Shown piece by piece: positions 1 through 25,891 of a stretch of 30,076 nucleotides of DNA. A program made the position numbers and the translations under genes. The stretch is from a virus, in IMG/VR virus record IMGVR_UViG_3300020182_000132, positions 1 to 30,076 of that record. One strand, 5' to 3'. Position 1 is the first letter of the stretch, and each line of letters starts with the position of its first letter. Under the pieces are notes generated by a model. That model ran no database searches. It saw only the letters and a program-made list of their open reading frames with translations, and was not told the origin of the DNA.

Positions 1-516
1 GAATTCGAGCCTATTTATAGTTTTTTGCTTCAAAAACGTGGATCGCTTACTCCTTTCTTCGTTTCTTTACCTCAGTACAAAGCACCTCGCGATACAACTT
101 TCGCTACGTTTGTAGCAAGTAATACATTTACGATGGCAGCCGCAGGAGCCGCAGGAGCCACAAACATTCTGATTACTCATGCGAGCTACGATAAAGACAC
201 AAAGGGTAAAGCAAAGCCAGGAGATATGTTTACAATTACAGACAGTTCGGACTCTAACCACAAAAAAATGTATCAGGTTACTCGTGTTGAGCATGATGCT
301 GACTATCTATCTGGTAGCACTGCACCAAGTGCTAGCCAGCTCCGAGTGCATTTTACTCCTGCACTTCAAAGAGCAGTAGCCACAGGCTCCGGTTCAGAGG
401 TAGAGTTTAACGATCCAAAGTTCCGTGTAATTCTAAAAAATGACGTACAGGAATATGATTTAAATACACAGAATCTATACAGCTTTTCTCTAAAGCTAGA
501 TGAGGCCCAACCCTAA
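1..516 (+). CDS. distal tail / minor tail protein, 5'-partial
   Basis: The reading frame is open from base 1, so this is the C-terminal ~171 residues of a longer protein. The TTG at 25 is probably not the start, because the upstream codons read EFEPIYSF and run straight into LLQKRGSLTPFFVSLPQ. The pattern of an aromatic-rich segment about a full-length loop, a 'GDMFTITD..KKMYQVTRV' beta segment, and a C-terminal 'VILKNDVQEYDL..LYSFSLKLDE' is what I associate with the phage tail protein encoded just upstream of J-like tail-tip genes (Dit or lambda L-like position). The stop overlaps the next start as TAATG at 514-518, implying coupled translation. Seen: the open frame, the overlap and the residue pattern. 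Inferred: the role as adaptor between tail tube and tail tip. It could be any small baseplate-hub protein, so the exact name is uncertain. Confidence 0.6.
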   Translation, partial: EFEPIYSFLLQKRGSLTPFFVSLPQYKAPRDTTFATFVASNTFTMAAAGAAGATNILITHASYDKDTKGKAKPGDMFTITDSSDSNHKKMYQVTRVEHDADYLSGSTAPSASQLRVHFTPALQRAVATGSGSEVEFNDPKFRVILKNDVQEYDLNTQNLYSFSLKLDEAQP

Positions 517-3500
517 TGACAATCCGAACACTTAACAGTACCCTTAAAAATTCTTTGATGAACTATGACCCTTTTGTTGTAGCGCATCTTATCAAGTTTG
601 AAAAGCCTCAAAGTGTGGTTCAGTATGGAGGCAAGTTAAAAGGTTTAGCTACTGATTATACTTATATTACCGATGCTCAATACGATATTGAATATGATGA
701 TGGCACTACAACTACAGAAGGTGGCGCTATATCTGCTCAGCTATATCGTGCAAATAAAGTTACTAAGTTAGGCACTGTAAACGAGAGTATACAAGCAAAA
801 GCGTCAAATATGACTCTGGTACTAGACTCTGCAAGTTTAGGAGCTAGTGCCACTACTAGTGCTACCTTTACCTCTTCTGTTATGGCAGGTACTGTTGATT
901 TAGCCGCAGAAGGCTTTCAAGAAGGGGACAAAATACTTTTATCAGGTTCTGGTAACACGAATGATGGTACTTATGTTCGTATTGATAGTTTTCAAAATGA
1001 GGGTAAAAGTATTACTTTTACTCAGATTAGTGCTATCTCGGTAAACGGAACAGCACAGACATATACTGTTACACTGGCCGCAGAAGAACTAAATACCTTA
1101 CTTACAGATAAATCATCTTCCTCTTATACTAGTTATATTAACCGAGAGGTTATTATTTACAAAGTACATATTAATCCTGCTACTCGCGCTATTATTGGTG
1201 CACCTTATCTTTACTTTAAAGGTATTACTAGCGGGGCTGCTATTAATGAGAAGTTAGATTCTTCAGAAATAACATGGACACTTTCAAGTCACTGGGGAGA
1301 TTTCTTACGTGTTCAAGGTAGACTGACAGATGATGCAACTCATCGAGCTTTACGTTCTGATGGCTCTCCTGATATAGACTCTGTGGTTAAACCAGAATAC
1401 GCAGGAGACTTAGGTTTTCTCCATGCCAACACAGCAATTAATCATATGGCTACTTATAACACGGTAGAAATAGAGTATAAACAAGTAGATATTAATGGAG
1501 GCTGGCCTGGAGGTAAAAGACTTCGAGAAGTAGAAGTTAATGTTCCTCGCCAAACCGATCTTCAGTTTAATATTCAATCAAAAATGTTACCTGTAGTATA
1601 TGGTGTTCAGAAAATAGACTCTTTTCCTATCTTTGTAGACACAAATAAAAGTAACTCAGCGGAAGTTTATAGAGCAGATGCTCTTTGTGAAGGCCCAATA
1701 GCAGGTGTATTAGATATATACCTGGAAGACAATAGTACTATATGCCTAGATAAAGCAGACTTTGATACTAGGGATACTTCAGGGACAAATTTTAATGCAG
1801 ATAGTGTTGAAATTATATGTTCTGGCAGAATGGACAGAGGAGATACTCTAGCACACTATACAGGCTCTACAGGGTCTGCCTTCAATTTTACTGGTACTTT
1901 CCTAAGTGACGCGGAGCAGTCTCGCGCCATGCAAGAGTATATAGAAACCTATCAAAATGTATCCTACTCTTCTAGTTCCACAGGTGCGGCTAACTCCTCT
2001 ACAGGAGATGCTACAGGTATTCTTCACAGAGGAACTCACAGTATTACAAGCCCTTTGAACGCTTCTTTTACTTTTCATACTGGAAAAGAAAATCAAAAAG
2101 CAGACGATAAGTTAGTCTCGATGGCTCAGGGCAACCAGTTTAAAGTTCAAAATGACTATTATACAGGTAAAGCGCAGTACTGGTCACCTTCTCATAGAGT
2201 ATTAGATACAGCGTATGTTGTAGGAAAATATACTATTGCAGAGGGAGAAACTACTCTACCTGAAATGAAATTTGTCGTTCGAGGCAGAGACCCTGAATGC
2301 TATAATTATGATTACAGCTATAAACAAGATTCAAGCCAGACGAATGCATCTGTCGGCACTTTCAGTTTGGGAGATACTGTAACTCTTAAAAAATCAAATG
2401 GTAATATGTCAGATGCGTCAGTAACAATTATTGACAAGTGGTCCACTTTTGATTCCGATGGTAATAGAGATCATAGATTTAGATTCTCTCCTGCGCCTAA
2501 TTTAGGAACAACTACGGCCTTTTACATGCAAAAAAGCACTAGTAATTGGCATATGCAAACCTGGGATCATACAGAAAATGCCGACGATGTAGCAGCAAAT
2601 TTATATCATTCTAGTTTTTCTGTGGCGGCAGGAACAAATCGAGGAAGAAAAGTTACTTTAACTTCTCCGAGCACAGCCTTTGAACATGCAGTTAATCACG
2701 CGGAAGCAATAATAGGTATTTATGATGCTGCAAATTCTGGGCTAGTAGCTTCTAGCTACTCTGATTTTTCCTATAATGCTAGTACTAATATTATAGACGA
2801 TCTTACCCGACTAACTTCAGATCCGGGTATAGATAGAATCTATGTTAAAAATGCTATACAGTTAGATAGTGGAGCCAGTAGTACTAATGATTATTACAAT
2901 GGTAATATTATTACTCTTACTGATAACTCGGGAGAAGCTCCTTATATCCAAGAAAGAAAGATTATAGACTACGATGGTGCCACCAGAGTTGCTATAGTTG
3001 ACGCTGTTTGGGACTATAACTTTTTACCTTCCACAAGTATGACATATTCAGTAGGCTCCGTAGGAGATAGACGAGTAACAATTAACCCTGCAATGCAACT
3101 GTTAGACTATATGACTAACAAAAGGTATGGTAAGGGTTTGGATATTACTAATGATATAAGTATAGACGCGTGGACACAAGCAGCTAGAGAGTGTGATACT
3201 CGCTCAAATGTAACCGTAGCAGTACCTACAAGTGCTAGTGTTGTGGCGGGAGAAGTTTATAAGTACCCATCTTCAGGTGCTCTGCAGTTTATGGGAACTG
3301 TAGAAAGTGTAGCTACTTTAGGGGGCAAAAAACAAGTAGTATTTAAAGATGTTGTAGGTAAACTAGGCACTAAATGGAATTCTTGGCAGTCTTTTGCTAG
3401 TGGTCAGCTTTATTGGCACAACTCTACATTGTACGCGGGTACAGGTAGTGTTGTTGCAACAGCTCCTACTGGAAGTGGAATTACGCTATCTTTAGCAAAA

Positions 3501-6500
3501 GTTGGAGGGGGTAGTCTAGCTGTCGATTTAGCTAGTGCATCTGCTAATGGCAATCCTGTTGTGAAAAAGTATAGTACTCTTACTCTAGGTTATACAGATT
3601 CCGGATACTCCTTATATGATGGAGACGATGTTAAGTATTGGAGATACCTAGGTTGGGATGATAATTCTCAAAGAAACGTTACTCGTCACCAAATGAACCA
3701 AGTAATAGACACTAAGTTACCTCTATTTGATAACATCAATAAGATGTTAAACCAGTTTAACGGTATTTTAAGATATACAGCAGGCAAGTATGAGCTAGAA
3801 GTTAAAAGCAAGAAAGGAACTGTAGATACCGCAGAGCAGATATCAGCAGAAGACATAATAGGTACAATTAAACTTAGCGATAAAGGACTAAAAAACAGTA
3901 AAAACTATGTTAGTACTTCTATTATTGATCCTAATAACAAGTTTGAGGGAAGAAGTATTTCTTTCTTTAACTCTACATATCTTAAAGAAGATAAAGGCAT
4001 TCAAAAGAAGGGTCAATTTAGTTTACCAGGCATAACAAACTACTTTAATGCTAGGTTTAATATTAAGCAGTATCTAGATGAATCCCGCTATGGTTTAACT
4101 GTACAATTTACAATGGCACCTAGAGGTCTTTTATTAGTTGCTGGTAGTATAATTGAATTTACATATCCTCGTTTTGGTTACACCTCCAAAGCATTTCGTA
4201 TTACTAACCTTAACTTTAAAAAGGATGGTACAGTAGATGTAACAGCGGACGAGCACAATGATGATGCTTATGTTATCCAAGAAGGTGGAAACGGGTACGG
4301 CGTAATAGAAGAGCCAGGATCAGGACAAGCACCTGAACCTTTACCTATTCCTGCTCGTCCTACCAATCTACAAGCGACTCAAACAAATCAAGGAGAAGTA
4401 GTTCTTACTTGGACAAATACAAGTACATTTACAAGCGCTTCTCATGAAGTCGAAATTTATCGAGGAACTGTAAATAACTTTACACATTCTTCCGTAACAA
4501 AAATAGGTTCTTCAACTACAGATGTTTATAACGACCCTATAAGTACAGGCTCTGGACTAACAACTCGTTACTACTGGATACGTTATGTTGTTCGTATGCC
4601 TCAATTAAACCTAGCAGGCTCAGAGTTTAGAAATGTACCTTCTTTGTACTACCCAAATACAGATGATTCTGGTTTTACAAACGGAGAAGGTATTACAGGA
4701 GTAGGTTTAGCAGTAAATGCCGTACGAACTATCAAGCTAGATCCTGGCACAACTTCTTCTTTTGTGTATCAAAATGATGAAACAGGTATTGAATCAGGCT
4801 ATGCTACAACTACTACTATTACAACTACCAAAACGAATGATGCAGGTACAGTTACTTATGTGTGGAAGTTAAATGATGTAGTTATAAGCGGAGCAACAAG
4901 CGCTAACTATACTTATACACCGCCCAATGCTTTTGGAGATATGCCTCAGAAAGTATCTGTGCATATGACAGACACTGTAGGTTCCGAGACCTTTACCGCT
5001 ACTGACTTTATAATGTTTACAGCTACTAAGATTGTAGTAAATGGTACAATTGGAGCCAATGGCTTCACAGTCACAGCGAGTAATGGTACACATAATTTTT
5101 CTGCGAGCAGTACGGGTGCTATAAGTAGTGTATCAAGTTACTCTAGTACTTTTACAGTGCTTAAAGGAACTACTGCTTTAACTTACGATGCAAGTGGAAG
5201 CCCTGCTGCGAATACTTACAAACTTGGTTCGTTTACAAATATTTCTCCAGCTAACTCAGTGGTGCCTATAAATACGAACGGAACAGTCACTATATCGAGT
5301 AGTTCAGGTAATCTTTTATCGGGTACTAGTGTTACTCAAGCTATTTTTGATGTGCCTATTATAGAGAATGATTCAGGTTCTACAATTGCTATATTTAAAA
5401 TGTCCATAACAAAAACTTTAGATGGTGGAAACGGCGATGCAGGTGTTAAAACAGCACTTGTTTACGCATATCAGAGATCTAGTAGTGCATTAACTAGCAA
5501 CCCAGGAGCTGTTACGGTTAATCTAAACAATGGAACAATATCAACATCGACTTTAGCAAACAGTTGGAAAAAAGAAATACCTTCCGGAACTGACCCTATA
5601 TATGTAGTTGCAGCTAGTGCGGCAGGTACAGGCAGTTCGGATAACATTGCAGCAAATGAGTGGTCCGCTCCTGTTGTTCTTTCTCAAAACGGTGACGACG
5701 GTTTAAATTCTGCAACTGTATTTATCTATAGAAAGACGAACTCTGCTTCAGAAAGCACCAAACCTATTGGAAACACTACTTATACTTTTAGTGGTGGAGG
5801 AGTTTCTTTCGCTAACGCTAATAATTGGAGCGCAACCATTCCTAGTGGTACAGAGACTTACTTATGGGCAAGAACAGCCACTGCCTCCAGTACTTCTGCT
5901 ACAGACATCATTGCGGACTCAGAATGGTCAAACGCAGAACTGCTTTCTGTAGGGGGTGGAGACGGTGTTCGTGGTGGTGGTATCTTTACATTTGAAGAAA
6001 GTACTGATAGCAACATTAGTGCTACAACGGCTTCGAAGTTTGCAGGTACACTTGATGATACAGCAGCAATAGCAGTAGCAGCAGCAGTAATCGCAGCAGC
6101 TTCTGATAGTACTATTCGTCCTAATGACCGAATAACTGTAACTGACAACAGCGCAAATAAAGCAGGAACTCGAGTTTACACAGGTTCTGCGCAAACGGCC
6201 TCCGGAAGTGTTTCTACGGGGGACTTTAGCTCGCTTGTTGTAGAAACTTTTGATGGAAGTGTAATCGTTGATGGTACTTTAAGTGCAGATAAGCTAGCAG
6301 CAAATACTATTATAGGTAATAATATAAAAGTTGGTAGTAATTTAGAGCTAAATACTAGCGGAGCATTTTATACTAGTAATAAAACATCTTATACCGATAA
6401 CGATGCTGGTTTCTTCTTAGGCTATACAGGAGGTGCACATAAGCTAAATCTTGGTGATGCAACTAACTATCTTAAATGGGACGGAACTAACCTAAATGTA

Positions 6501-6794
6501 GCCGGAACAATTGCAATGACAAGTAGTAGTACCATTGGCTCTGGGTCTACAACAATAGGTGATGTAAACACAGCCGCTTCTAATGCGGGCACAGCCGCTT
6601 CTAATGCTCAAGGTACTGCTAATAGTGCAAGCTCTGCCGCATCTGCAGCACAAACTACGGCTACCGCAGCGGCTAGTACTGCCGGAGGAGCTTCTTCGGG
6701 AAATAGTAGAGCTTTTATGAATAGTAACGGTTTAGTAGTTGTAGACGGTTCTGGAACTAAACGAGTAAAAATAGGAAACTTAGGTTCTTTATAA
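516..6794 (+). CDS. lambda J-like tail-tip / host-specificity protein
   Basis: A 2092-residue protein forming the tail tip that contacts the host. The N-terminal half has J-like blocks: 'MLPVVYGVQKI' near residue 356 followed by 'ALCEGPIAGVLDIYL'; 'INPAMQLLDYMTNKRYGKG' near 855; 'FDNINKMLNQFNGILRY' near 1072; and 'APRGLLLVAGSIIEFTYP' near 1200, as in the central hub of gpJ. A fibronectin type III domain lies at about 1285-1375 (starts PARPTNLQATQ, with VVLTWTN and YYWIRYVV). Two tandem ~87-residue beta modules at 1640-1725 and 1726-1814 share G-D-x-G starts, 'IPSGT(D/E)', and 'D.IA..EWS.A..LS'. The C-terminus has the 'DGTLSADKLAANTI' motif common in J-like proteins (~1918), then an Ala/Ser/Thr-rich linker and a short end domain. 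The start overlaps the upstream stop by 1 nt, with a weak GAGG at 502-505. Identification as a tail-tip protein is secure; receptor specificity cannot be read. Confidence 0.85.
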   Translation: MTIRTLNSTLKNSLMNYDPFVVAHLIKFEKPQSVVQYGGKLKGLATDYTYITDAQYDIEYDDGTTTTEGGAISAQLYRANKVTKLGTVNESIQAKASNMTLVLDSASLGASATTSATFTSSVMAGTVDLAAEGFQEGDKILLSGSGNTNDGTYVRIDSFQNEGKSITFTQISAISVNGTAQTYTVTLAAEELNTLLTDKSSSSYTSYINREVIIYKVHINPATRAIIGAPYLYFKGITSGAAINEKLDSSEITWTLSSHWGDFLRVQGRLTDDATHRALRSDGSPDIDSVVKPEYAGDLGFLHANTAINHMATYNTVEIEYKQVDINGGWPGGKRLREVEVNVPRQTDLQFNIQSKMLPVVYGVQKIDSFPIFVDTNKSNSAEVYRADALCEGPIAGVLDIYLEDNSTICLDKADFDTRDTSGTNFNADSVEIICSGRMDRGDTLAHYTGSTGSAFNFTGTFLSDAEQSRAMQEYIETYQNVSYSSSSTGAANSSTGDATGILHRGTHSITSPLNASFTFHTGKENQKADDKLVSMAQGNQFKVQNDYYTGKAQYWSPSHRVLDTAYVVGKYTIAEGETTLPEMKFVVRGRDPECYNYDYSYKQDSSQTNASVGTFSLGDTVTLKKSNGNMSDASVTIIDKWSTFDSDGNRDHRFRFSPAPNLGTTTAFYMQKSTSNWHMQTWDHTENADDVAANLYHSSFSVAAGTNRGRKVTLTSPSTAFEHAVNHAEAIIGIYDAANSGLVASSYSDFSYNASTNIIDDLTRLTSDPGIDRIYVKNAIQLDSGASSTNDYYNGNIITLTDNSGEAPYIQERKIIDYDGATRVAIVDAVWDYNFLPSTSMTYSVGSVGDRRVTINPAMQLLDYMTNKRYGKGLDITNDISIDAWTQAARECDTRSNVTVAVPTSASVVAGEVYKYPSSGALQFMGTVESVATLGGKKQVVFKDVVGKLGTKWNSWQSFASGQLYWHNSTLYAGTGSVVATAPTGSGITLSLAKVGGGSLAVDLASASANGNPVVKKYSTLTLGYTDSGYSLYDGDDVKYWRYLGWDDNSQRNVTRHQMNQVIDTKLPLFDNINKMLNQFNGILRYTAGKYELEVKSKKGTVDTAEQISAEDIIGTIKLSDKGLKNSKNYVSTSIIDPNNKFEGRSISFFNSTYLKEDKGIQKKGQFSLPGITNYFNARFNIKQYLDESRYGLTVQFTMAPRGLLLVAGSIIEFTYPRFGYTSKAFRITNLNFKKDGTVDVTADEHNDDAYVIQEGGNGYGVIEEPGSGQAPEPLPIPARPTNLQATQTNQGEVVLTWTNTSTFTSASHEVEIYRGTVNNFTHSSVTKIGSSTTDVYNDPISTGSGLTTRYYWIRYVVRMPQLNLAGSEFRNVPSLYYPNTDDSGFTNGEGITGVGLAVNAVRTIKLDPGTTSSFVYQNDETGIESGYATTTTITTTKTNDAGTVTYVWKLNDVVISGATSANYTYTPPNAFGDMPQKVSVHMTDTVGSETFTATDFIMFTATKIVVNGTIGANGFTVTASNGTHNFSASSTGAISSVSSYSSTFTVLKGTTALTYDASGSPAANTYKLGSFTNISPANSVVPINTNGTVTISSSSGNLLSGTSVTQAIFDVPIIENDSGSTIAIFKMSITKTLDGGNGDAGVKTALVYAYQRSSSALTSNPGAVTVNLNNGTISTSTLANSWKKEIPSGTDPIYVVAASAAGTGSSDNIAANEWSAPVVLSQNGDDGLNSATVFIYRKTNSASESTKPIGNTTYTFSGGGVSFANANNWSATIPSGTETYLWARTATASSTSATDIIADSEWSNAELLSVGGGDGVRGGGIFTFEESTDSNISATTASKFAGTLDDTAAIAVAAAVIAAASDSTIRPNDRITVTDNSANKAGTRVYTGSAQTASGSVSTGDFSSLVVETFDGSVIVDGTLSADKLAANTIIGNNIKVGSNLELNTSGAFYTSNKTSYTDNDAGFFLGYTGGAHKLNLGDATNYLKWDGTNLNVAGTIAMTSSSTIGSGSTTIGDVNTAASNAGTAASNAQGTANSASSAASAAQTTATAAASTAGGASSGNSRAFMNSNGLVVVDGSGTKRVKIGNLGSL

Positions 6795-6863: not shown

Positions 6864-7202
6864 ATGAGTGCAGCCCGCTACAACCTAGTTATTGACCAAG
6901 GTTCCGACTTTGCCATTAACTTTACAGTCAAAGAAGATGGATCAGCTAAAAATCTGACAGGCTACTCTGCGCGTGCTCAAATGAGAACATCAAAGACAGC
7001 CTCTTCAGTAGCCGCTACTTTTACGTGCACTATTAGTACTCCTACTAATGGAACAGTTACAATGTCTTTACCAAATGCAACCAGTTCAGCATTGACTGCA
7101 GGAACTTATGTCTATGATTTAGAAATTTTTACTGCTAACAATGCTATTGTAACGAGACTTTTACAAGGATCGGTAGATCTTACTCAAGAGGTTACTCGAT
7201 AA
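6864..7202 (+). CDS. small virion structural protein (baseplate/fibre-associated, BppU-N-like)
   Basis: A 112-residue all-beta protein. It begins 'ARYNLVIDQGSDFAINFTV' and continues with 'LTGYSARAQMRTS', 'TVTMSLPNATSSALTAGTYVYDLEI' and 'VTRLLQGSVDLTQEVTR'. This order (Y-x-L-x-I-x-Q-G-x-x-F, then LTGY.aR.qiR, then G.Y.YDLE, then V.RLLqG.v...pEVTR) is what I know as a widespread small phage structural protein resembling the N-terminal domain of baseplate upper protein BppU. The assignment is from memory of that pattern. It is the first gene after the consensus promoter, with GGAGG seven bases before ATG, so it should be strongly expressed. It overlaps the next gene as TAATG. It probably attaches fibre components to the tail tip; that role is inferred. 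Confidence 0.6.
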   Translation: MSAARYNLVIDQGSDFAINFTVKEDGSAKNLTGYSARAQMRTSKTASSVAATFTCTISTPTNGTVTMSLPNATSSALTAGTYVYDLEIFTANNAIVTRLLQGSVDLTQEVTR

Positions 7203-7588: not shown

Positions 7589-8641
7589 ATGGCTCAAACA
7601 ATTCAAATCAAACGCAGTACGTCTACCGCAACTCCTTCAAGCCTTGTCGCAGGTGAACTTGCGTATTCAGGTAAGTCAGATAGTAATAAGTTATTTATAG
7701 GCCACCCCGATGGTTCAACAGGACCTGTTGTTATTGGCGGTGTGTACTACACTGGAATTATTGATGGTGCAACTAACGCAAATACTGCAAGCAAACTTGT
7801 AAAACGAGACGGCTCAGGAAACTTCAGTGCTGGTACAATTACAGCTACTTTAACAGGTGATGTAACTGGTGATGTTACTGGTAACGCAGATACTGCCACA
7901 GCTCTTGCTTCAGGCAGAACGATTGCAATCACAGGGGACTTAACGTATACTTCTCCTAGCTTTACAGGTGCTGGTGATGTTACCGCAGCAGGTACTCTTG
8001 CAACAGTAAACTCAAACGTAGGGCAAGCAGGTTCGGCTACAGCAGTACCAGTTATTACAGTCAATGCAAAAGGTCTTGTTACTGCAGTGTCTACTGCCTC
8101 AATATCAACTTCTTATAACTTAGCAGCGGATTCAGGTACTACTAATGCGGTAGCGGGCGGCGAAACTTTAACTATTGCTGGAGGCACTGGTGTAGATACT
8201 GTTGTAAGCGGTAATACTGTTACAGCAAGTATTGGTCAGGCAGTAGGAACTTCTGATGCTGTAAGTTTCGGAAATATTACAACTAGTGGATACCTGAGAG
8301 GCCCTGCCACTTTCACTATTGATCCAGCGACACACGCTGACAATACGGGAACTGTAGTTATCGCTGGTAATCTAACAGTTAATGGTACTCAAACTACTGT
8401 TAATTCTAATACTGTTAATATTGGCGATGCCATTATGACATTGAACAGTGATGAAGCTGGTACACCTTCAGCAAATGCTGGTATTGAAGTTGAACGTGGT
8501 ACCGCAACAAACGTATCTCTTCTTTGGAATGAAGGCAGTGATTATTTCCAAATAAATGACGGTTCTACCACTTCCAAGATATTAACAGCAGGTAACTTTG
8601 CCTCGTCCTTCACAGGAACACTAGACGGCGGAACATTCTAA
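7589..8641 (+). CDS. tail fibre protein with Mtd-N-like N-terminal domain
   Basis: A 350-residue protein. Residues 1-55 (MAQTIQIKRSTSTATPSSLV, then GELAYS...KLFIG) look like the tropism-determinant N-terminal fold found on many phage fibres, which anchors them to the tail. The rest is low-complexity beta repeats rich in T, G, A and N ('GDVTGDVTGNADTATALAS'; 'AGNLTVNGTQTTVNSNTVNIGDAIMTLNSDE'), typical of elongated fibre shafts in marine phages. The C-terminus reads 'ILTAGNFASSFTGTLDGGTF'. GGAG at 7578-7581 sits seven bases before the ATG. The next gene begins with a near-copy of this N-terminal domain. A fibre role is well supported by composition and context; the receptor is unknown. Confidence 0.72.
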   Translation: MAQTIQIKRSTSTATPSSLVAGELAYSGKSDSNKLFIGHPDGSTGPVVIGGVYYTGIIDGATNANTASKLVKRDGSGNFSAGTITATLTGDVTGDVTGNADTATALASGRTIAITGDLTYTSPSFTGAGDVTAAGTLATVNSNVGQAGSATAVPVITVNAKGLVTAVSTASISTSYNLAADSGTTNAVAGGETLTIAGGTGVDTVVSGNTVTASIGQAVGTSDAVSFGNITTSGYLRGPATFTIDPATHADNTGTVVIAGNLTVNGTQTTVNSNTVNIGDAIMTLNSDEAGTPSANAGIEVERGTATNVSLLWNEGSDYFQINDGSTTSKILTAGNFASSFTGTLDGGTF

Positions 8642-8689: not shown

Positions 8690-8920
8690 ATGGCACAAAC
8701 GATCAAATTAAAGCGCTCGTCTTCGGCGGGCTCTATTCCTACTCATTCACAACTAGAGTTAGGCGAAGTTGCTATCAATACTGCGGACGGTCGTATGTAT
8801 ATGAAAGACGGAGCTAATGCCATTGTCTGGGTAAATAAAACTTCTGAAATTACAGGAACCACTCCGCAAGCATCGGACGGAACAAATAAGCCCGTAGGGT
8901 ATGTTTGGTATGTAGTCTAG
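8690..8920 (+). CDS. short fibre-anchor protein, paralogue of the upstream fibre N-terminus
   Basis: A 76-residue protein that starts MAQTIKLKRSSSAG, almost the same as the MAQTIQIKRSTST of the 350-residue fibre, and continues 'QLELGEVAINTADGRMYMKDGANAIVWV', the same Mtd-N-like fold. It ends after ~20 more residues with 'GTNKPVGYVWYVV', so it is essentially a stand-alone anchor domain without a shaft. AGGAG at 8679-8683 lies six bases before the ATG. Its stop is one base before the start of the giant repeat protein, which has no clear ribosome-binding site of its own and may depend on translation of this gene. One reading is that it is a split anchor for the giant fibre downstream. Confidence 0.62.
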   Translation: MAQTIKLKRSSSAGSIPTHSQLELGEVAINTADGRMYMKDGANAIVWVNKTSEITGTTPQASDGTNKPVGYVWYVV

Positions 8921-8921
8921 A

Positions 8922-11900
8922 ATGACTATTAAGGTCTGGAACGGTTCCGCAGTACAAGAACCTGAGCAAATAGTAGTTAAAGCTGCAGCGGGAACGTTGC
9001 GGTTTGTAAACTATGTCGTACAGAAAGTTACGGATGGAAGTCTTAACACTGTATGGAATGCTATCTATAATACAAGCCGGACTACCGATACTTCTAGAAG
9101 CTCTACTACTACCTTTACTACCACCTATAATACAAGTGTTAGCACCAATGTTAGCACAACCACAGGCTTTGACACAATTAGGGGAACAACGAGAAGTACT
9201 GCGAGTACTTACACTACTTCTTTTGATACTTCTGCTGTCACTTCAAAGTCTACCACTACAGCCTATAGCACTACTTTCGGTACAACTGCAAGCACAACCA
9301 CTACTTATGTTAGTAACTTCGATACAACTCGAGGTACTACAGTAAGTACCACTACCTCTTTCAATACTACTTTTGCTACATCGAAAGATACTACTACGGC
9401 ATTTACCACTACCTTTGATACTGCTACTAGTGTGGCTACTACTACTGCATTTACTACAACGTATGAAACAACTCGTGCCACTGCAGTAGATACGACTACT
9501 ACGTTTACAACTACTTTTGCTACCAGTGCAACTACTAATACTGTATTTACTACTACGTTTAATACTACGACTACGAAGTCTACGACTACTGCGTATACTA
9601 CGACTTTCAATACGAGTACAACTACTCTGCGAAATACTACTACAACGTACACTACTAACTTTAACACTACAAAAAGTACTGTTACTACTTTCAATACAGA
9701 ATTTGCTACAGGCACTAGCAGGGCCACTACTACAACGTATACTACTACGTTTAATACAACCCGATCCACTACTATAGATACTACAACTGCTTATACTACA
9801 ACTTTCAATACTAGCAGATCTACAACTATAGATACTACCACTACGTTTAATACTACGACGACTCGTAGTACTACGACTACGTATACGACTAATTTTAATA
9901 CTTCAAGAGGTACTTCTAAGTCTACTACTGTAAACACTACTACGACTTTTGATACTTCTCGAAGCACTTCTAAATCTACAACTACTGTATTCAATACTCA
10001 GACTTCAAGAGGTACAGATAGAGCAACCACTACGACCTTTAATACTTCTCGAAGCACAAGCAGGGGTACCAGCAGAGCTACTACTACAACTTTTCTCACA
10101 GGAACTAGCCGCAGTACTACTACAGCTTTTGTAACTGCTACAAGCAGAAGCACAAACAGGGCAACCACTTCCGTTTATGACACAAGCAGAGGTACTTCTA
10201 AAGTTACGTCTAAGTCTACGACTACTGCTTTTGCTACTGGAACGAGTAGAACTACCACAAGTGTTTACAATACTTCAAGAGGAACAAGCAGAGGTACTAG
10301 TCGCGGAACAACTACTGTTTTTGGAACAGGTACAAGCCGAGGAACAACAACAGCGTTCAACACTACAACTACCTTTACTACTACTCGCGCATCAAATACG
10401 GTATACGCTACAAGTAGAACTACAGGTACTTCGCGAGGGACTACTACTGCTTTTGCAACTGCTACAAGCAGGTCTACTACAACCGCTTTTAACACTACCA
10501 CTACTTTTGCCACAAGCAGAAGCTCCACTACAGTTTATACTACTAGTACAGCATTTTTGACCTCTAAGTCTACGACTACCTCATTTAGTACTACGACTAC
10601 CTTTACTACTTCGAGAACGTCCAGCACAGTATTTACTACAACTACTAGTAGATCTACTAGTACTAGCAGAACTACTACTTTTGGTACTACTACGAGTAGA
10701 AATACAGGAGAGTCGAGATCTACTACAACCAGTTTTAATACTAGTAGAGGTACAACTTTTGGTACTACGACGACTTTTGGTACAACAACGAGCAGAAGTA
10801 CAGGAGAATCTAGAGGGACTACTACAAGTAGAACTACTAATACAAGTCGTACTACTACATTTACTACAACAAGTGCTTTTGGTACTACCACTAGTTATAC
10901 TACAACTACTTCGTTTAATACTACGACTACTTTTGGTACTACTACCGCTTATGTGGCAAATACTTCTAGAACTACTAATACTTCAAGAGGTACGTCTCGT
11001 GGTACGTCTCGTGGTACGTCTCGTGGTACGTCTCGTGGTACAAGCAAAAGCACTACAACTGCTTTTGTCAGGCAGACTGCTTTTAACTCACTTGTAAGCC
11101 GAACTACGACTTACAATACAAGCCGTACTACTACTTACCGAACATATTACTACTCTCGAAGTCATACAAGTAGAATTACCAGCAGGACTACTACTTTTGC
11201 CACTAGCAGGACTACTACTTTCTTCCAAGACGTACGACACAATACTGCTGTAAGTCAAAGTACGACTACTTCCTACACTACTTCGTACAGTACTGCATTT
11301 ACTACTTCGTATACTACTTCATATAGTACTGTCTTTGGTACTGCTACTACTTTTGGAACAGCAAAAAGTCAAAGTACCGCCACAAGTAGAGCAACTGGTA
11401 CTAGTAGAGGAACAGGAGAATCTAGGGGAACTACTACAAGTAGAGGCACAGCCACAAGTCGTACAACTACTTTTGGTACTAGTACTGCTTTTGGCACTAC
11501 TACTGCTTACACTACAACTACTAGTTTTGGTACAGCAACAAGCAGAGGCACTACTACAAGTCGTACTACTACGTTTGGAACTAATAGAAGCACTACAACT
11601 TCTTATACCACCAGTACTGCATTTGTAACGGCTACGAGCAGGACTACTACTTTTGGGACTACAACTGCTTTTGGCACCGCCACAAGCAGAAACACTACTA
11701 CTACCTATAATACAAATAGATCAACAGGTACGAGTAGAGGTACGACTACTACTTATACTACAAGTAGAGGTACAACTGAATCAAGAAGTACTACTACTAC
11801 TTTTGCCACAAATAGAGCGACAGGTACAAGCAGATCTACTAGCTCTGTATTCAATACAGGTACTAGTAGAAGTACTACCACTGCTTTTGGTACTACCACT

Positions 11901-13340
11901 ACTTTTGCCACAAATAAAAGTACCACGACTACTTTTAATACAAACAGAGCAACAGGTACAAGCAGAGGTACAACTACCGCATTTACAACTGCTACTAGCA
12001 GAAGTACGACTACTGCATATACTACGGCATTTACTACTACATTTGCTACAAGTAAAAGCACGACTACTTCGTTTAATACTACAACTACTCGTAGTACGAC
12101 GACTACGTATACTACTGCCTTTTCTACTGTATTTAATACTTCTTTGAGTACTACCACTACATTTACAACTACTTTTGGTACTACAACTACTAGGGCTACA
12201 ACGACTGCGTTTAATACTAATACTACGCTTTCTACGACTACCGCATTTACTACTACGTTTACTACTACTTTTGCAACGAGTAAAAGTACAACTACTGCGT
12301 TCACTACTACTTTTGCTACTGCAACAAGTAAGAGTACTACTACAACTTTTAATACTACTTTTGCAACAAGTAGAAGCACGGGCTGTGTATACACCACTGC
12401 GTATACTACTACGTTTGGTACAAGTAATATAACATCAAAAGCAACCACCACAGCATTTGTTACTGCTACTAATAGAACAACGACTAGTACTTATACTACT
12501 ACATTTGGAACAAGTAGAGGCACTTCAAGAACCACCACTAGTACATATAATACTATATTTAATACTAGTAATGTAACCGATAAATCAACTACTACGGCGT
12601 TTAATACTACTACGTCTCGTTCTACTACGAAAGACACTACTACTACGTTTATAACTAGCAGAACTACTACAAATGAAACTGGTTGCACTTATACTACTAC
12701 TTTCGCAACAAGTAGAGGCACTACAAAATCTACTACTACGGCATTCTCAACCGCAACATCTAGAGTAACTAATTTTGATACAACTACTGTATTCGATAGT
12801 TCTAGAAGCACTTCGAGAAGCACTAGTAGCCAATACACTACTGTATTTAATACGAATAAAGGCACGAGCAGGTCTACTACTTCTGTATTTAATACAGCCA
12901 CTAGTAGAGGAACAGACCATCAGACAAGCACCGTATATGATACAACAGGAGGAACTTCAAGAGTTACTTCGAGTGCTTTTGCTACCGTATTTAATACTAC
13001 TGTAACGACTGCCAAAAGCACGACTACAGCATTTGATACCTCTAGAGCTACTTCCAGGAGTACTACCAGTGCCTATACTACTACGTTTGCTACTTCTAAG
13101 AGCACGCAAGTTACTACAACCACTGCGTTTTCTACAATTTATAATACTACCCGTAGTACAACTACTACGCGTACAACTACTTTTGAGACTAGCAAAGCGA
13201 CCTCAAGAGCTACCACTACCACGTTTGGAACAAATACAGTTGTATACGAACGTGTCACAAGTACAGGAGTTGAAACCGAGGTTTCATCTTCTTCTGCACA
13301 CAACTCACGATATTGGGATGGATCACAATGGACGGAATAA
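8922..13340 (+). CDS. giant Thr/Ser/Arg/Phe tetrad-hexad repeat protein, putative tail fibre
   Basis: A 1472-residue protein in three parts. Residues 1-47 are a normal-looking domain (VWNGSAVQEP, ending TDGSLNTVWNAIY). Residues ~48-1440 are pure repeat, and the last ~30 end 'NSRYWDGSQWTE'. In the repeat, anchor residues (mostly F, Y, R, K, rarely V, A, I, L, N, G, H) recur every 4 or 6 residues in every segment I indexed: tetrads like F-N-T-S or R-G-T-S and hexads like R-S-T-T-T-A. Anchors and most Thr thus share one parity, and small residues (N, S, G, A, T) fill the other, as in one long beta arrangement with two faces. It is strongly basic, has only a few Cys, and carries many N-T-S/N-T-T triplets. 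The ATG is one base after the previous stop, without a clear Shine-Dalgarno, suggesting coupled translation. A virion fibre role is inferred from position and composition; I recognise no family. Confidence 0.7.
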   Translation: MTIKVWNGSAVQEPEQIVVKAAAGTLRFVNYVVQKVTDGSLNTVWNAIYNTSRTTDTSRSSTTTFTTTYNTSVSTNVSTTTGFDTIRGTTRSTASTYTTSFDTSAVTSKSTTTAYSTTFGTTASTTTTYVSNFDTTRGTTVSTTTSFNTTFATSKDTTTAFTTTFDTATSVATTTAFTTTYETTRATAVDTTTTFTTTFATSATTNTVFTTTFNTTTTKSTTTAYTTTFNTSTTTLRNTTTTYTTNFNTTKSTVTTFNTEFATGTSRATTTTYTTTFNTTRSTTIDTTTAYTTTFNTSRSTTIDTTTTFNTTTTRSTTTTYTTNFNTSRGTSKSTTVNTTTTFDTSRSTSKSTTTVFNTQTSRGTDRATTTTFNTSRSTSRGTSRATTTTFLTGTSRSTTTAFVTATSRSTNRATTSVYDTSRGTSKVTSKSTTTAFATGTSRTTTSVYNTSRGTSRGTSRGTTTVFGTGTSRGTTTAFNTTTTFTTTRASNTVYATSRTTGTSRGTTTAFATATSRSTTTAFNTTTTFATSRSSTTVYTTSTAFLTSKSTTTSFSTTTTFTTSRTSSTVFTTTTSRSTSTSRTTTFGTTTSRNTGESRSTTTSFNTSRGTTFGTTTTFGTTTSRSTGESRGTTTSRTTNTSRTTTFTTTSAFGTTTSYTTTTSFNTTTTFGTTTAYVANTSRTTNTSRGTSRGTSRGTSRGTSRGTSKSTTTAFVRQTAFNSLVSRTTTYNTSRTTTYRTYYYSRSHTSRITSRTTTFATSRTTTFFQDVRHNTAVSQSTTTSYTTSYSTAFTTSYTTSYSTVFGTATTFGTAKSQSTATSRATGTSRGTGESRGTTTSRGTATSRTTTFGTSTAFGTTTAYTTTTSFGTATSRGTTTSRTTTFGTNRSTTTSYTTSTAFVTATSRTTTFGTTTAFGTATSRNTTTTYNTNRSTGTSRGTTTTYTTSRGTTESRSTTTTFATNRATGTSRSTSSVFNTGTSRSTTTAFGTTTTFATNKSTTTTFNTNRATGTSRGTTTAFTTATSRSTTTAYTTAFTTTFATSKSTTTSFNTTTTRSTTTTYTTAFSTVFNTSLSTTTTFTTTFGTTTTRATTTAFNTNTTLSTTTAFTTTFTTTFATSKSTTTAFTTTFATATSKSTTTTFNTTFATSRSTGCVYTTAYTTTFGTSNITSKATTTAFVTATNRTTTSTYTTTFGTSRGTSRTTTSTYNTIFNTSNVTDKSTTTAFNTTTSRSTTKDTTTTFITSRTTTNETGCTYTTTFATSRGTTKSTTTAFSTATSRVTNFDTTTVFDSSRSTSRSTSSQYTTVFNTNKGTSRSTTSVFNTATSRGTDHQTSTVYDTTGGTSRVTSSAFATVFNTTVTTAKSTTTAFDTSRATSRSTTSAYTTTFATSKSTQVTTTTAFSTIYNTTRSTTTTRTTTFETSKATSRATTTTFGTNTVVYERVTSTGVETEVSSSSAHNSRYWDGSQWTE
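10989..11036 (+). repeat. four exact tandem copies of a 12-bp unit (ggtacgtctcgt)
   Basis: The unit ggtacgtctcgt occurs four times head to tail with no mismatch, in frame, encoding (Gly-Thr-Ser-Arg)x4. Flanking copies of the same peptide use different codons. Elsewhere in the gene the peptide repeats are spelled with mixed Thr codons, so this block looks like a recent expansion by slippage or unequal recombination. Confidence 0.9.
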
Positions 13341-13480
13341 ACCTCAAAGACTTAAATCACAAATTAGAAACAACTTTAGAAATCGTTATGGAGCACTTCG
13401 TAGAAATGGAAGAGCGCATGGAAGATTTAGAACTTCAACTAGAGGAACTAGAAAATGGGTCTAACAAGACTAGCGGATAA
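13328..13480 (+). CDS. 50-residue acidic coiled-coil protein
   Basis: ATG at 13328, TAA at 13478-13480. It begins MDGINLKDLNHKLETTLEIV and is dominated by E, L and M (EERMEDLELQLEELE near residues 28-42) with a heptad-like Leu/Met spacing, so a coiled coil is likely. It overlaps the giant repeat gene by 13 nt at one end and the next gene by 26 nt at the other. Without it, the 114-nt stretch 13341-13454 would be empty. A long shadow ORF (13033-13464) in the same area has the Leu/Arg-rich composition of an off-frame translation. Its place just after a fibre gene, small size and coiled coil recall T4 gp57A-type trimerisation chaperones or SlyX, but I see no sequence proof. It is real in my judgement because composition, spacing and overlaps all fit this operon. 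Confidence 0.6.
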   Translation: MDGINLKDLNHKLETTLEIVMEHFVEMEERMEDLELQLEELENGSNKTSG

Positions 13481-14333
13481 TGATGAGCTAGGAAACAAAG
13501 CAGCGCACTTCTTTAAATCTGGCAATATAATGCGTACAGATGAAAATAATGAAGTTACAAAACTAACAGACTTATTACCTGCTTACGGCAACTGGCATAC
13601 ACCTTTAGAGTATGATATATGGTATGATATAGCGGAAGAGGTAATCACTGGCTATACATACACAGACGTATTTTCTAAGTGTCTAATGCTCCGCGTGGCT
13701 TCTTGGGAGAAAGCTTGTCGAACAATGAGGCTAGCAGCAAGGGAGCCGGTAACAGAAGAAGGCTTAGCTATTTTTAACGAATTACGTGATAATAGTCACG
13801 ATAAATATAAACTTAGCAAAAGAAAACAGAAGAAGCATAAATTTGTTATTTTTCTTCCCGGCACTAATATACTAGATAAGGTGTTAGACTACGACAAGAC
13901 TAAAAGAGCTGTGGCTCAAGGAGCTGTGCTCAAGTGTCACCCTTTGACAGCGCCAGGAATGGTAGCGTACCTCAAGTCGGAGTTCGGTAGAGAAAATGTA
14001 CTAGCTAAAAAGTTATCGGGGCACCGTCTTTTAGATGAAGCAGACATCGTAGGATGTTGTACTAATTCAGAAATGGGACTAATTGCTCTTGCCAAAGGCA
14101 AAACAGTTTATACTTTTGATTTAAATGACAAGCTACAAACCACGTACTGTGCTATTTATAAGGCAGTCTGGGGCAAGGACGATATGCCTAGCACAGAAAG
14201 ATTTATAAGACTACTTTCAGCTAAGTATTCTGGTATTATACCTTACTTTATAGACAACCCTAAAGAAAGAATCGACTACTATTTTAATTTTTGGAAAGCA
14301 TACCCCCATGAAATACCTCGTCCTAGAAAATAA
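13455..14333 (+). CDS. KpsC/Kdo-transferase-like protein (putative glycosyltransferase)
   Basis: A 292-residue protein. The first ~125 residues are not recognised. The rest resembles the C-terminal lobe of capsule polysaccharide transferases (KpsC/LpsZ type): 'HKFVIFLPGTN' (128-138), 'VLKCHPLT' with the His-Pro pair at 162-163, and 'LDEADIVGCCTNSEMGLIAL' from 192 followed by 'AKGKTVYTFD'. The last block mirrors the family pattern of a hydrophobic 'aD.v.t..S..g.EAL..GK.V.tfG' that holds the nucleotide sugar. Known KpsC-type enzymes act on lipid-linked sugars. Here the gene directly follows a Thr/Asn-rich fibre, so the target could be the fibre or a host surface sugar; both are inference. AGAGGA at 13441-13446 is eight bases before the ATG. 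It overlaps the 50-residue ORF upstream by 26 nt and the next gene by 26 nt. Confidence 0.55.
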   Translation: MGLTRLADNDELGNKAAHFFKSGNIMRTDENNEVTKLTDLLPAYGNWHTPLEYDIWYDIAEEVITGYTYTDVFSKCLMLRVASWEKACRTMRLAAREPVTEEGLAIFNELRDNSHDKYKLSKRKQKKHKFVIFLPGTNILDKVLDYDKTKRAVAQGAVLKCHPLTAPGMVAYLKSEFGRENVLAKKLSGHRLLDEADIVGCCTNSEMGLIALAKGKTVYTFDLNDKLQTTYCAIYKAVWGKDDMPSTERFIRLLSAKYSGIIPYFIDNPKERIDYYFNFWKAYPHEIPRPRK

Positions 14334-15015
14334 CTATACTGCCCTTACTGTAAACTCTATCGAACAAAACATGCCAGATGCAGAGTATAAGGTCGTTCCT
14401 ATAGAAGGCGGAAAAATTCCTACGGCTTTAAAACACTGTACGGAACCAACTATGGTTGTTATGGGAGGTATAGTTTTAAATATTAAAGAAGGAGATCTGC
14501 CTTCCGCAGAAAAACTAAAAAAGCATCATTTAGCAATGAGCAGAGAAGCTGTTTTTGCAGACCACCCTAAATGGAAAAAGAATTATATTCTGCTAAAAAG
14601 TAAACTTCACGAAGGCGTTGTGGATATGTCTATTTTTATTATTAACCCTGCGAAATGGAGGACTGTACCTAAGGATGATTCAAATTTTATACTTGGAAAG
14701 AAAATAATGTATATGCCAAGATACATGAATCACAGAGACGATCCAACTTTAGGAACTTGTATGGGAGGCTACGATGTATTAAACTACGGGTCTTTGGGAG
14801 AGGATGCTTCTGTTTACAACTATCTTACACATTTGTATTCTGGAGAGGCTAATGTAAGGGACACTTTTGGATGTTGCTTTGACAAGCTATTACCTTTTAC
14901 AGAAGGTCTTGAAGACAATGAAAAGAAAATAGTTGAAAGACTAGGGAATCTTACTAAGGTAAGGGTAGGAAAGTTAAGACAGATGTTCGTAGACAGAAAA
15001 AAAGCCCCTGATTAA
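14308..15015 (+). CDS. unknown protein, possible glycosyltransferase
   Basis: A 235-residue soluble protein, last gene of the rightward operon, overlapping the KpsC-like gene by 26 nt. Visible segments are 'TMVVMGGIVLNI' (~48-59), 'KLKKHHLAMSREAVFADHPKW' split around residue 80, and 'EGVVDMSIFIINPAKWRTVP' (~102-121). The 'F(I/L)IN..KW' pattern is reminiscent of the 'GVMLINLKKW' stretch of GT8-type sugar transferases, and small proteins of this kind sit beside phage tail genes with other transferases. That likeness is weak, and no clear DxD motif is seen. There is no signal peptide or membrane segment. Its stop lies in the loop of the hairpin terminator at 15001-15024. Function should be treated as unknown. 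Confidence 0.5.
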   Translation: MKYLVLENNYTALTVNSIEQNMPDAEYKVVPIEGGKIPTALKHCTEPTMVVMGGIVLNIKEGDLPSAEKLKKHHLAMSREAVFADHPKWKKNYILLKSKLHEGVVDMSIFIINPAKWRTVPKDDSNFILGKKIMYMPRYMNHRDDPTLGTCMGGYDVLNYGSLGEDASVYNYLTHLYSGEANVRDTFGCCFDKLLPFTEGLEDNEKKIVERLGNLTKVRVGKLRQMFVDRKKAPD

Positions 15016-15029: not shown

Positions 15030-15506
15030 TTATGGGTGAGTAGGAAATCCTATTTGTTTCTCTAGCATTCCTGCTATATTTTCTACTTGCTCTTCAGTTA
15101 CCCAGCTAACTCCTAGGTTAAACTGTATAACTCCAGGTTTAGTACCTGCTTTAGTACACATATTTTCAAAAGCTAATGTATATTTGCATACCGCTTCTGG
15201 AAACTCATCTACAAGATTAACTTCGTCTATATTAACTCTTATATCTGTTATGCCGTCTCTATGAAAAGCCTGTATCTCAGGGCAATCTTCGTTAATATAT
15301 AATGCATCAGTTTTTGCCGTTGCTCTACTAAACTCAGAATTACCAAAGTTAGGGAAAGATAACGAAATATCTGGAAACCAGATGTTACTACCAAAACTTT
15401 CTACTCTATCATTTTGTTCCACGTTATTTCTGGCAATATCGTCAAGCATACCTAAGTAGCTTAACTCACTACCAAAACGAGGGTCTTGTTCTTGTTGTTC
15501 ACTCAT
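15030..15506 (-). CDS. hypothetical protein, last gene of the leftward operon
   Basis: A 158-residue acidic protein, not recognised. It begins MSEQQEQDPRFGSELSYLGM, has Asn/Phe-rich 'SLSFPNFGNSEFSRA' near residues 48-62, and ends 'NIAGMLEKQIGFPTHP'. It contains three Cys (one near residue 75, two at ~107-116) without a paired metal-binding pattern. There is no signal peptide, membrane segment or nucleotide-binding motif. AAGGAA stands about seven bases before the ATG. It follows the ribonucleotide reductase gene by 11 nt, and its stop is six bases from the shared terminator. Position suggests co-expression with nucleotide metabolism, but no function can be given. Confidence 0.65.
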   Translation of the reverse strand: MSEQQEQDPRFGSELSYLGMLDDIARNNVEQNDRVESFGSNIWFPDISLSFPNFGNSEFSRATAKTDALYINEDCPEIQAFHRDGITDIRVNIDEVNLVDEFPEAVCKYTLAFENMCTKAGTKPGVIQFNLGVSWVTEEQVENIAGMLEKQIGFPTHP

Positions 15507-15517
15507 TTTTATATTCC

Positions 15518-17398: not shown

Positions 17399-18219
17399 TA
17401 TACCATTCTCTCCTCAATATTGGACACATTGTCCTTGCCTATTGCGTCATCGCAATATGTTACTAAATCCATCAACTCATAGTTCTTTAGCAGTACTTCT
17501 GCGTTTTCATTCAATTCTTGTATGTACTTGTATTTGCCCTCGATGGGTATACAATCATAAATTGACATGGCATCGCCATACTGTTCTATAAGTTGTTGTG
17601 CTCTTTTCGGCCCTATGCCGTTGATTCCTGGGACATTATCACCTTTATCTCCTGTTAAACACTTGAAAGAGATATACTCTTCTGGTTTAACTTCGTAGTG
17701 CTCATGCCAGTTATCTATTGTTACCTCTTTTCGAGTAACGTAAGAAAATCTACTTACACCGTCCTGAATCAATAAGTCCCAGTCTCGGTCACTAGATACT
17801 AGCCAGATGTTTTCTAAGCCATAATCTTTTCTACGCTTTACGAGGTGGGCAGCAAGATCATCTGCCTCTACACCTTTGTAACGAAGAACTTCAAAGCTCT
17901 CTGATAGTAATTCTAGTGTTTCTTCGTACTCTTCAAAGAAGTCAATAAATGCTTGCTTCTCTGCTTCAGTTTGTTCAGCATACTTATCTTTTCGATTCTG
18001 TTTGTACTCTGGTAATATCTCTTTTCGATAACTCGATGATCCCCAATCTGCTGTGATAATAACCTTACCACAGTTGTAGGAGGTTGCTAGAGATTTTACT
18101 GTTTCTACATACTGATCACGAAAATCTGTTCTGCCTTGATGTTTCCACCGAAAAGCTAAGTTTAGTGCATCTACTATGAGTACACCATCTTGGTTGCGTT
18201 CGTTAAAATTAAAAGCCAC
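17398..18219 (-). CDS. FEN-type 5'-3' exonuclease (flap endonuclease / RNase H-like)
   Basis: A 273-residue structure-specific 5' nuclease that removes RNA primers and flaps. Metal-binding acidic residues are in the expected order: Asp17 in 'VLIVDALNLAFR', Asp58 in 'VIITADWG', Glu118/Asp120/Asp121 in 'VEADDLAAHL', Asp144/Asp146 in 'SSDRDWDLL', and Asp191/Asp194 in 'TGDKGDNVPG'. The arch has 'YRKEILPEYKQNRK' (64-77). The helix-three-turn-helix 'NVPGINGIGPKRAQQLIEQ' begins at 195. The polymerase in this operon has no 5' nuclease domain of its own, so this gene supplies that activity, as in T7 gp6 or T5 D15. It overlaps the resolvase gene by 11 nt and the reductase by 3 nt. Confidence 0.93.
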   Translation of the reverse strand: MAFNFNERNQDGVLIVDALNLAFRWKHQGRTDFRDQYVETVKSLATSYNCGKVIITADWGSSSYRKEILPEYKQNRKDKYAEQTEAEKQAFIDFFEEYEETLELLSESFEVLRYKGVEADDLAAHLVKRRKDYGLENIWLVSSDRDWDLLIQDGVSRFSYVTRKEVTIDNWHEHYEVKPEEYISFKCLTGDKGDNVPGINGIGPKRAQQLIEQYGDAMSIYDCIPIEGKYKYIQELNENAEVLLKNYELMDLVTYCDDAIGKDNVSNIEERMV

Positions 18220-18746: not shown

Positions 18747-18748
18747 CC

Positions 18749-22491: not shown

Positions 22492-22492
22492 T

Positions 22493-22521
22493 ATTATACT
22501 TCCTTTTTACCATTTTGTCAA
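22493..22521 (-). promoter_or_regulatory. consensus sigma70 promoter, leftward (TTGACA-17-TATAAT)
   Basis: On the minus strand, TTGACA (22521-22516) and TATAAT (22498-22493) are 17 bases apart. The 17 bases ending in the -35 box are identical to those at 6804-6820. The AT-rich upstream part overlaps the 3' end of the helicase gene. The predicted start near 22486 falls in codon 2-3 of the GTG gene, so the promoter would best serve the SSB, gp47/gp46, resolvase, FEN and reductase genes further on. Confidence 0.8.
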
Positions 22522-22532
22522 GAATTATTTTT

Positions 22533-25888: not shown

Positions 25889-25891
25889 ATA

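What the first reader, a model, noticed from the sequence alone, without database searches (positions are those of the whole stretch)
8922..13340. A 1472-residue protein written in a two-word code of 4- and 6-residue units
Anchor residues (F, Y, R, K and a few others) along ~1390 residues are separated by 4 or 6 positions in every segment I indexed, at the start, middle and end. All anchors therefore share one parity. Tetrads read anchor-x-T-(S/T) and hexads anchor-x-T-x-T-x. The opposite parity carries small residues. Such an alternation suggests one continuous beta structure with a Thr/aromatic/Arg face and a small-residue face. I know no described fibre or solenoid class with this mixed 4/6 rule (pentapeptide, left-handed hexapeptide and triple beta-spiral repeats differ). 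The order of 4s and 6s and of aromatic versus basic anchors could itself encode shape. The TxT arrays also recall ice-binding surfaces, but that is speculation.
Basis: partly seen in the sequence, partly recalled or inferred. Interest (0 to 1): 0.88.

Follow-up and report, generated by a model that had tools for sequence, protein, structure and literature searches.

The report
Threonine-alternating phage fibre with glycosyltransferase partners
A marine phage makes a very long tail-region protein in which large residues recur every 4 or 6 positions on one side of an alternating threonine chain, and across many unrelated phages such proteins travel with one or two glycosyltransferase-like genes, so the protein is probably a sugar-coated virion fibre rather than a bare new fold.

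Summary
The pattern is real. In residues 48-1440 of the 1472-aa protein, 255 of 261 F/Y/R/K spacings are even and 231 are exactly 4 or 6; shuffled sequence gives about 55% odd. Relatives keep it: 52 of 52 indels outside one small region are even-length, and the threonine/anchor face evolves 2-3 times more slowly than the small-residue face. The order of 4s and 6s is not conserved, and a monomer AlphaFold model failed (pLDDT 32), so the beta-fibre idea is untested.

The main finding lies outside the given coordinates. The protein belongs to a broad phage class (sipho-, podo- and myoviruses, including KVP40, Lullwater, Cr30 and DLP6). It is followed by P12, a putative GT-B ulosonate-transferase-like enzyme, and in many lineages by P13, a GT-A fold. 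P12 accompanies 51 of 58 repeat genes found by DNA pattern alone and none of 54 control loci. In one lineage P12 sits beside Kdo-8-P synthase and a GT29-like gene. Best reading: a tail or baseplate fibre O-glycosylated by dedicated enzymes, working like bacterial serine-rich-repeat glycoproteins. The coupling is shown; glycosylation, the sugar, virion location and structure are inferred. I found no prior description in the open-access papers searched.

The parts
8922..13340 (+). TxT protein, 1472 aa: T 42%, S 14%, F/Y/R/K anchors spaced 4 or 6 on one parity
8922..9062 (+). N-terminal cap (residues 1-47, MTIKVWNGSA...TVWNA), conserved in relatives 311-1781 aa long
9063..13241 (+). alternating-threonine core (residues 48-1440), variable in length between relatives
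11136..11276 (+). irregular stretch (residues 739-785) holding all odd spacings; relatives carry a globular insert in the middle of the core
13242..13337 (+). C-terminal cap (residues 1441-1472, ...TEVSSSSAHNSRYWDGSQWTE)
   Evidence: weak DUF2510 match
13455..14333 (+). P12, 292 aa, putative GT-B (ulosonate-transferase-like) partner with invariant KxHP and near-invariant SE motifs
14308..15015 (+). P13, 235 aa, GT-A glycosyltransferase fold (model pLDDT 92.5), overlapping the P12 end
8690..8920 (+). 76-aa protein with a tail-fibre-type N-terminus, ends 1 base before the TxT start (context)
7589..8641 (+). 350-aa virion structural protein (context)
6864..7202 (+). LtfC/BppU-like tail-fibre assembly protein (context)
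516..6794 (+). central tail fibre J-like protein, 2092 aa (context)
25..516 (+). distal tail protein (context)

Best explanation
The 1472-aa protein is a fibre- or stalk-like virion component of the tail region. Its alternating-threonine core is a scaffold that dedicated phage enzymes O-glycosylate. P12, encoded next to it, is a GT-B-type transferase, probably for a CMP-activated ulosonic acid (Kdo- or sialic-like) or a relative. P13 is a GT-A-type partner that primes or extends the glycan. One face of the extended chain, threonine interrupted every second or third position by F/Y/R/K, is held by selection as the acceptor or enzyme-recognition face; the other face only needs small residues. 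The core is free to change length in two-residue steps. Shown here: the pattern, its conservation, the cassette and its distribution, and the predicted GT-A fold of P13. Inferred: P12 chemistry, that the core is the substrate, the sugar, virion location, and the role in adsorption or shielding.
For: Pattern and selection: (anchor-face threonines kept 96-97% against 71-90% on the other face). Linkage from the repeat side: DNA pattern scan alone, 51 of 58 repeat loci with downstream DNA carry P12, 0 of 54 loci without the repeat do; whole-record searches find P12 elsewhere for two of the exceptions. Linkage from the P12 side: about 67 of 80 loci have the repeat gene, 3 are cut off, and 3 of the 10 with a displaced pair have it elsewhere on the record. 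Isolated phages: Lullwater gp41/gp42, BL198 gp046/gp047, Cr30 AGS81089/81088, KVP40.0254/.0256, F86, K575 and D479 (adjacent or within two genes); DLP6 has both in one genome. Control: N-terminal homologues lacking the repeat (Xanthomonas X1, BUCTxx99, DLP6_075) have no P12 beside them. P13 matches GT-A enzymes in PDB and BFVD. P12: KxHP invariant and SE nearly so in 27 diverse members; sub-threshold Capsule_synth and GT52. One lineage places P12 beside Kdo-8-P synthase, a cupin and a GT29-like gene.
Against: P12's Pfam matches are below the curated cut-offs, and profile searches of PDB sequences find nothing. P12 lacks the QxxxD motif of KpsC-type Kdo transferases. P13 has no recognisable DxD motif, and its TM-scores to solved enzymes are modest (0.3-0.5). 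No glycan or mass-spectrometry data exist. Genetic linkage would also fit a folding chaperone. Many contigs are near-duplicates, so locus counts overstate independence.
Confidence: 0.66

Rival explanations
1. A new trimeric beta-fibre class: three chains pair along extended strands with F/Y/R/K/T on one face and small residues on the other. P12 and P13 are dedicated folding chaperones or catalytically dead GT-like scaffolds.
For: Strict two-residue parity and even-length indels; slow evolution of one face; position among tail genes; the monomer model fails as expected for an intertwined oligomer.
Against: P12 keeps the same HP and SE motif residues in diverse members; P13 is a full GT-A fold; one lineage adds Kdo-8-P synthase and a GT29-like gene. 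The random mix of 4s and 6s fits no fixed strand length. Beta structure and glycosylation are compatible.
Confidence: 0.17
2. The core is an extended, largely disordered mucin-like or sticker-and-spacer chain; parity reflects only the two-residue step of an acceptor motif, as in serine-rich-repeat proteins.
For: SRR regions are made of alternating serines that are O-glycosylated by GTs encoded alongside (PMC6973325); free length change; low AlphaFold confidence.
Against: Regular anchors at 4 or 6 and their conservation exceed what a bare acceptor motif needs.
Confidence: 0.1
3. An ice-binding TxT surface.
For: TxT motifs only.
Against: The same proteins occur in phages of temperate soil, pond and Vibrio hosts; F/Y/R/K break the TxT rows every 4-6 residues; no flat repeat of fixed length.
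Confidence: 0.02
4. Low-complexity sequence from tandem DNA expansion, without a protein-level rule.
For: Some short tandem arrays.
Against: Synonymous codon differences exceed non-synonymous ones (566 against 352 to L013); 52 of 52 indels are even in residues; the rule recurs in 65 of 87 distinct threonine-rich proteins.
Confidence: 0.02

Closest known systems
Serine-rich repeat (SRR) glycoprotein loci of streptococci, staphylococci and lactobacilli (GtfA/GtfB plus accessory GTs)
   Same: Very long protein of alternating hydroxyl residues, variable in length, between end domains, with two or more GT genes beside it (PMC6973325).
   Different: Phage virion gene rather than a cell-wall adhesin; threonine, not serine; no accessory Sec system seen; the GTs are a different type; regular aromatic/basic anchors.
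Autotransporter adhesins AIDA-I/TibA with adjacent heptosyltransferases (from memory, not tested)
   Same: Repetitive Ser/Thr-rich adhesin modified by a dedicated neighbouring GT.
   Different: Known beta-solenoid with a 19-residue repeat and outer-membrane barrel, neither seen here.
KpsC/KpsS/WbbB beta-Kdo transferases (Pfam Capsule_synth; GT99)
   Same: HP motif and a near-threshold Capsule_synth match in P12.
   Different: QxxxD nucleophile motif absent in P12; acceptor presumed to be a protein.
Bacterial sialyltransferases (GT52) and GT29
   Same: KVP40.0256 has a weak GT52 match; a GT29-domain gene lies in the Kdo-8-P synthase lineage.
   Different: Scores of P12 homologues are below cut-off; activity unknown.
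Glycosylated mycobacteriophage capsids and tails with neighbouring GTs (from memory, not in the searched library)
   Same: Phage-encoded GTs acting on virion proteins.
   Different: Substrates there are capsid or tail subunits, not a dedicated alternating-threonine protein.
Triple beta-spiral, gp5-type beta-helix and hexapeptide/pentapeptide solenoids
   Same: Repetitive fibrous proteins, some with even-numbered repeats.
   Different: Fixed repeat length; here 4 and 6 are freely mixed; no sequence match.

Membership tests
SRR glycoprotein locus | long core of alternating hydroxyl amino acids | tested here: met
   alternation of T with small residues, (threonine instead of serine)
SRR glycoprotein locus | dedicated GT genes beside the repeat gene | tested here: met
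   GT-like genes P12 and P13; their activity is not shown
SRR glycoprotein locus | GtfA/GtfB-type priming enzymes | tested here: not met
   P12/P13 Pfam scans show no such family
SRR glycoprotein locus | accessory Sec export and cell-wall anchor | tested here: not met
   no such gene named in the part of the window scanned; no LPxTG-type end
SRR glycoprotein locus | O-linked glycan on the repeats | not testable with these tools
   needs mass spectrometry
GT-A glycosyltransferase (P13) | GT-A fold | tested here: met
   model pLDDT 92.5; most top PDB and BFVD matches are GT-A glycosyltransferases or related nucleotidyltransferases
GT-A glycosyltransferase (P13) | DxD metal motif | tested here: not met
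   no DxD among conserved columns of A2; metal-independent GT-A enzymes exist
Capsule_synth / beta-Kdo transferase (P12) | HP motif | tested here: met
   KxHP invariant in 27 of 27 members
Capsule_synth / beta-Kdo transferase (P12) | QxxxD nucleophile motif | tested here: not met
   absent from the conserved columns of A5; motif from PMC10148158
Capsule_synth / beta-Kdo transferase (P12) | Pfam score above gathering cut-off | tested here: not met
   19.4 against 20 bits
Known phage fibre or solenoid class | sequence match to a curated family or solved structure | tested here: not met
Known phage fibre or solenoid class | fixed repeat length | tested here: not met
Known phage fibre or solenoid class | trimeric beta structure | tested here: inconclusive
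   monomer model pLDDT 32; trimer prediction not available

The most novel reading that the evidence does not exclude
A mobile phage system, shared by sipho-, podo- and myoviruses, builds a virion fibre or baseplate whisker from an alternating-threonine scaffold and coats it with ulosonic acids (Kdo- or sialic-like) using its own transferases and, in one lineage, its own Kdo-8-P synthase. It would be a phage counterpart of bacterial SRR glycoproteins and possibly a form of host-surface mimicry.
Probability: 0.35. Interest if true: 0.9.

Novelty: new variant of a known kind. Interest (0 to 1): 0.77.

Why it matters
If right, unrelated phages carry a portable kit for making glycoprotein fibres, so some phage fibres may present sugars as well as bind them. 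It gives testable functions to genes now called hypothetical in isolated phages such as KVP40, Lullwater, Cr30 and DLP6, and supplies a natural two-residue design rule for a long repetitive scaffold.

Tried and rejected
AlphaFold monomer of residues 1100-1472 with 9 relatives: pLDDT 32, no usable fold. Fixed solenoid turn from a ~16-residue period and a three-anchor cycle: dropped because it holds in only part of the family and fits tandem duplication. Order of 4s and 6s as a code: not conserved. tblastn of the repeat against isolated phages: no match, probably because low-complexity masking hides it; P12 and the end domains were used instead. Lullwater and DLP6 P12 as single queries: one and zero loci. 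KVP40.0257 as a P13 relative: no support. Many loci from the TxT DNA pattern are chance or antisense frames and served as controls. Literature searches found no description of the cassette.
Full report
OBSERVATION. The ORF at 8922-13340 encodes 1472 residues. Of 261 spacings between F/Y/R/K in residues 48-1440, 116 are 4, 115 are 6 and only 6 are odd (2.3%; 2000 shuffles average 55%, minimum 45%); 256 of 262 anchors share a parity. All odd spacings start at residues 739-772. Tetrads have T at +2 in 113/116; hexads have T at +2 in 109/115 and at +4 in 98/115.

SELECTION. A scan of IMG/VR with the protein gave 57 loci. Relatives share a ~47-residue N-cap and a ~32-residue C-cap (RYWDGSQWTE), while full-length forms range from 311 to 1781 aa. 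Many carry a globular insert in the middle. Between the window and seven relatives, all 52 gaps outside residues 715-790 are even (2 to 76 residues); two-residue gaps are commonest. These counts are not fully independent, because relatives share history and the alignments are of repetitive sequence. In four comparisons the anchor face changes at 11-17% of sites and the small face at 20-40%; anchor-face threonines are kept 96-97% of the time, small-face threonines 71-90%; synonymous codon changes exceed non-synonymous ones. Across 87 distinct threonine-rich proteins in the fetched loci, 65 have under 25% odd spacings (median 10%), with T/F/R/Y/K on one face and T/S/N/A/G on the other.

STRUCTURE. 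AlphaFold of residues 1100-1472 with nine sequences gave pLDDT 32. This excludes nothing: an intertwined oligomer, a glycosylated extended chain and disorder would all look like this. Aromatic and basic anchors cycle every three anchors (period ~16 residues) in the window's clade and in L024 and L017 more weakly, but not in L014, L026, L050 or L060. The order of 4s and 6s is near random.

THE CASSETTE. Directly downstream lie P12 (13455-14333) and P13 (14308-15015). In the family loci these two genes follow the repeat gene almost wherever DNA is available, although upstream tail genes and the downstream replication genes change. Three routes test the link. (a) Cap-first loci: 49 with P12, 4 without downstream DNA, 1 without P12 (L050, a fusion to a T4-gp7-like baseplate protein). 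(b) P12-first loci: 80, of which about 67 have the repeat gene, 3 are cut off, and 10 have the pair beside a small terminase-like gene; in 3 of those 10 the repeat gene is elsewhere on the record. (c) Repeat-first by a pure DNA pattern: of 58 repeat loci with downstream DNA 51 have P12; of 54 loci without a real repeat none does. The exceptions are mostly gp7 fusions, and the records of two of these hold P12 elsewhere.

ISOLATED PHAGES. P12 homologues occur in 28 of 50,697 phage records. Lullwater gp41 and BL198 gp046 (T7-like) are repeat proteins next to gp42/gp047; Cr30 AGS81089, a shorter Thr/Tyr-rich protein, precedes AGS81088; DLP6 has the repeat as an extension of a baseplate wedge protein and P12 near the neck genes. 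KVP40.0254 is a 197-aa repeat protein two genes before KVP40.0256; F86, K575 and D479 keep the arrangement. Phages with the same N-terminal domain but no repeat (Xanthomonas X1, BUCTxx99, DLP6_075) show no P12 nearby. A SAR92-clade bacterium carries the three genes close to a portal gene, presumably a prophage.

WHAT THE PARTNERS ARE. P13 folds confidently (pLDDT 92.5). Its PDB matches are mostly GT-A enzymes: LH3, the PBCV-1 capsid glycosyltransferase, alpha-1,3-galactosyltransferase, GlyE, LARGE1. Its best viral match is a 250-aa protein with TM 0.71; the length equals DLP6 AAY80_003, the gene after DLP6's P12 homologue, which also aligns by hhalign at E 1.7e-5. That the two are the same protein is my inference. 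P13 has no clear DxD. P12 has invariant KxHP, GxN, YD and KY and near-invariant SE. Its best Pfam matches are Capsule_synth (19.4 against 20 bits) and, for KVP40.0256, GT52; both families handle CMP-ulosonates. KpsC-type enzymes share an HP motif with CMP-sialic-acid transferases (PMC10148158), but their QxxxD motif is missing in P12. In L176, L182 and L234 the gene after P12 is a Kdo-8-P synthase (tested for L176 and L234, above the TIGR01362 cut-off; L182 by sequence likeness), followed by a cupin and, tested in L176, a GT29-domain protein; L201 ends inside the synthase gene. P12 is therefore most likely a transferase of an ulosonic acid or similar sugar; this is inference.

HOW IT LIKELY WORKS. 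P12, alone or with P13, modifies threonines of the core in the cell; the modified protein joins the tail or baseplate through its N-terminal domain, which differs between lineages (own cap, gp7, KVP40-type). The modified core acts as a stalk or coat, with the C-cap or central insert as a possible binding tip. The closest working analogue is the SRR glycoprotein locus, where alternating serines are O-glycosylated by neighbouring GTs (PMC6973325). Membership in that family fails, since there are no GtfA/GtfB enzymes and no accessory Sec system.

LIMITS. No experiment shows sugar, virion location or structure. IMG/VR contigs are fragments and partly redundant. The paper library holds only open-access papers. 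PHROGs and Pfam scans of the window covered the main ORFs, not every small one.

Noticed in passing
L176:6245-8785, L182:5802-8315, L234:7954-10527, L201:4517-4954: After P12: Kdo-8-P synthase fused to ~190 further residues, a WbuC-like cupin, and a protein with a GT29 sialyltransferase domain (L201 is cut off inside the synthase). A phage-borne ulosonate pathway.
   Followed up: partly
L050:88-7386, L060:6995-10861, L222, L249: T4-gp7-like baseplate wedge proteins with a C-terminal alternating-threonine extension of up to ~1900 residues.
   Followed up: partly
L070:8914-9510 (KVP40.0254): KVP40 carries a repeat protein and P12; relatives are annotated 'cell wall mannoprotein', a composition artefact.
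   Followed up: yes
L290: SAR92-clade gammaproteobacterium with the full three-gene cassette near a portal gene: a host lead for one clade.
   Followed up: partly
L031, L040, L026, L139 (middle of the repeat ORF): Variable globular insert (...YxYQRG...YYIxR...) inside the core, a candidate receptor-binding domain; the window keeps only a short irregular remnant at residues 739-785.
   Followed up: no
L097, L098, L099, L102, L103, L105, L106, L117, L120, L136: P12 and P13 placed beside a small terminase-like gene, away from the repeat gene.
   Followed up: partly
window 15030-29801: Minus-strand replication module: ribonucleotide reductase, SbcCD-like nuclease, SSB, helicase, radical SAM protein, PhoH, DNA polymerase, primase.
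   Followed up: no
window 8690-8920: 76-aa ORF with a tail-fibre-type N-terminus and no fibre body, 1 base before the repeat gene; conserved in close relatives.
   Followed up: no
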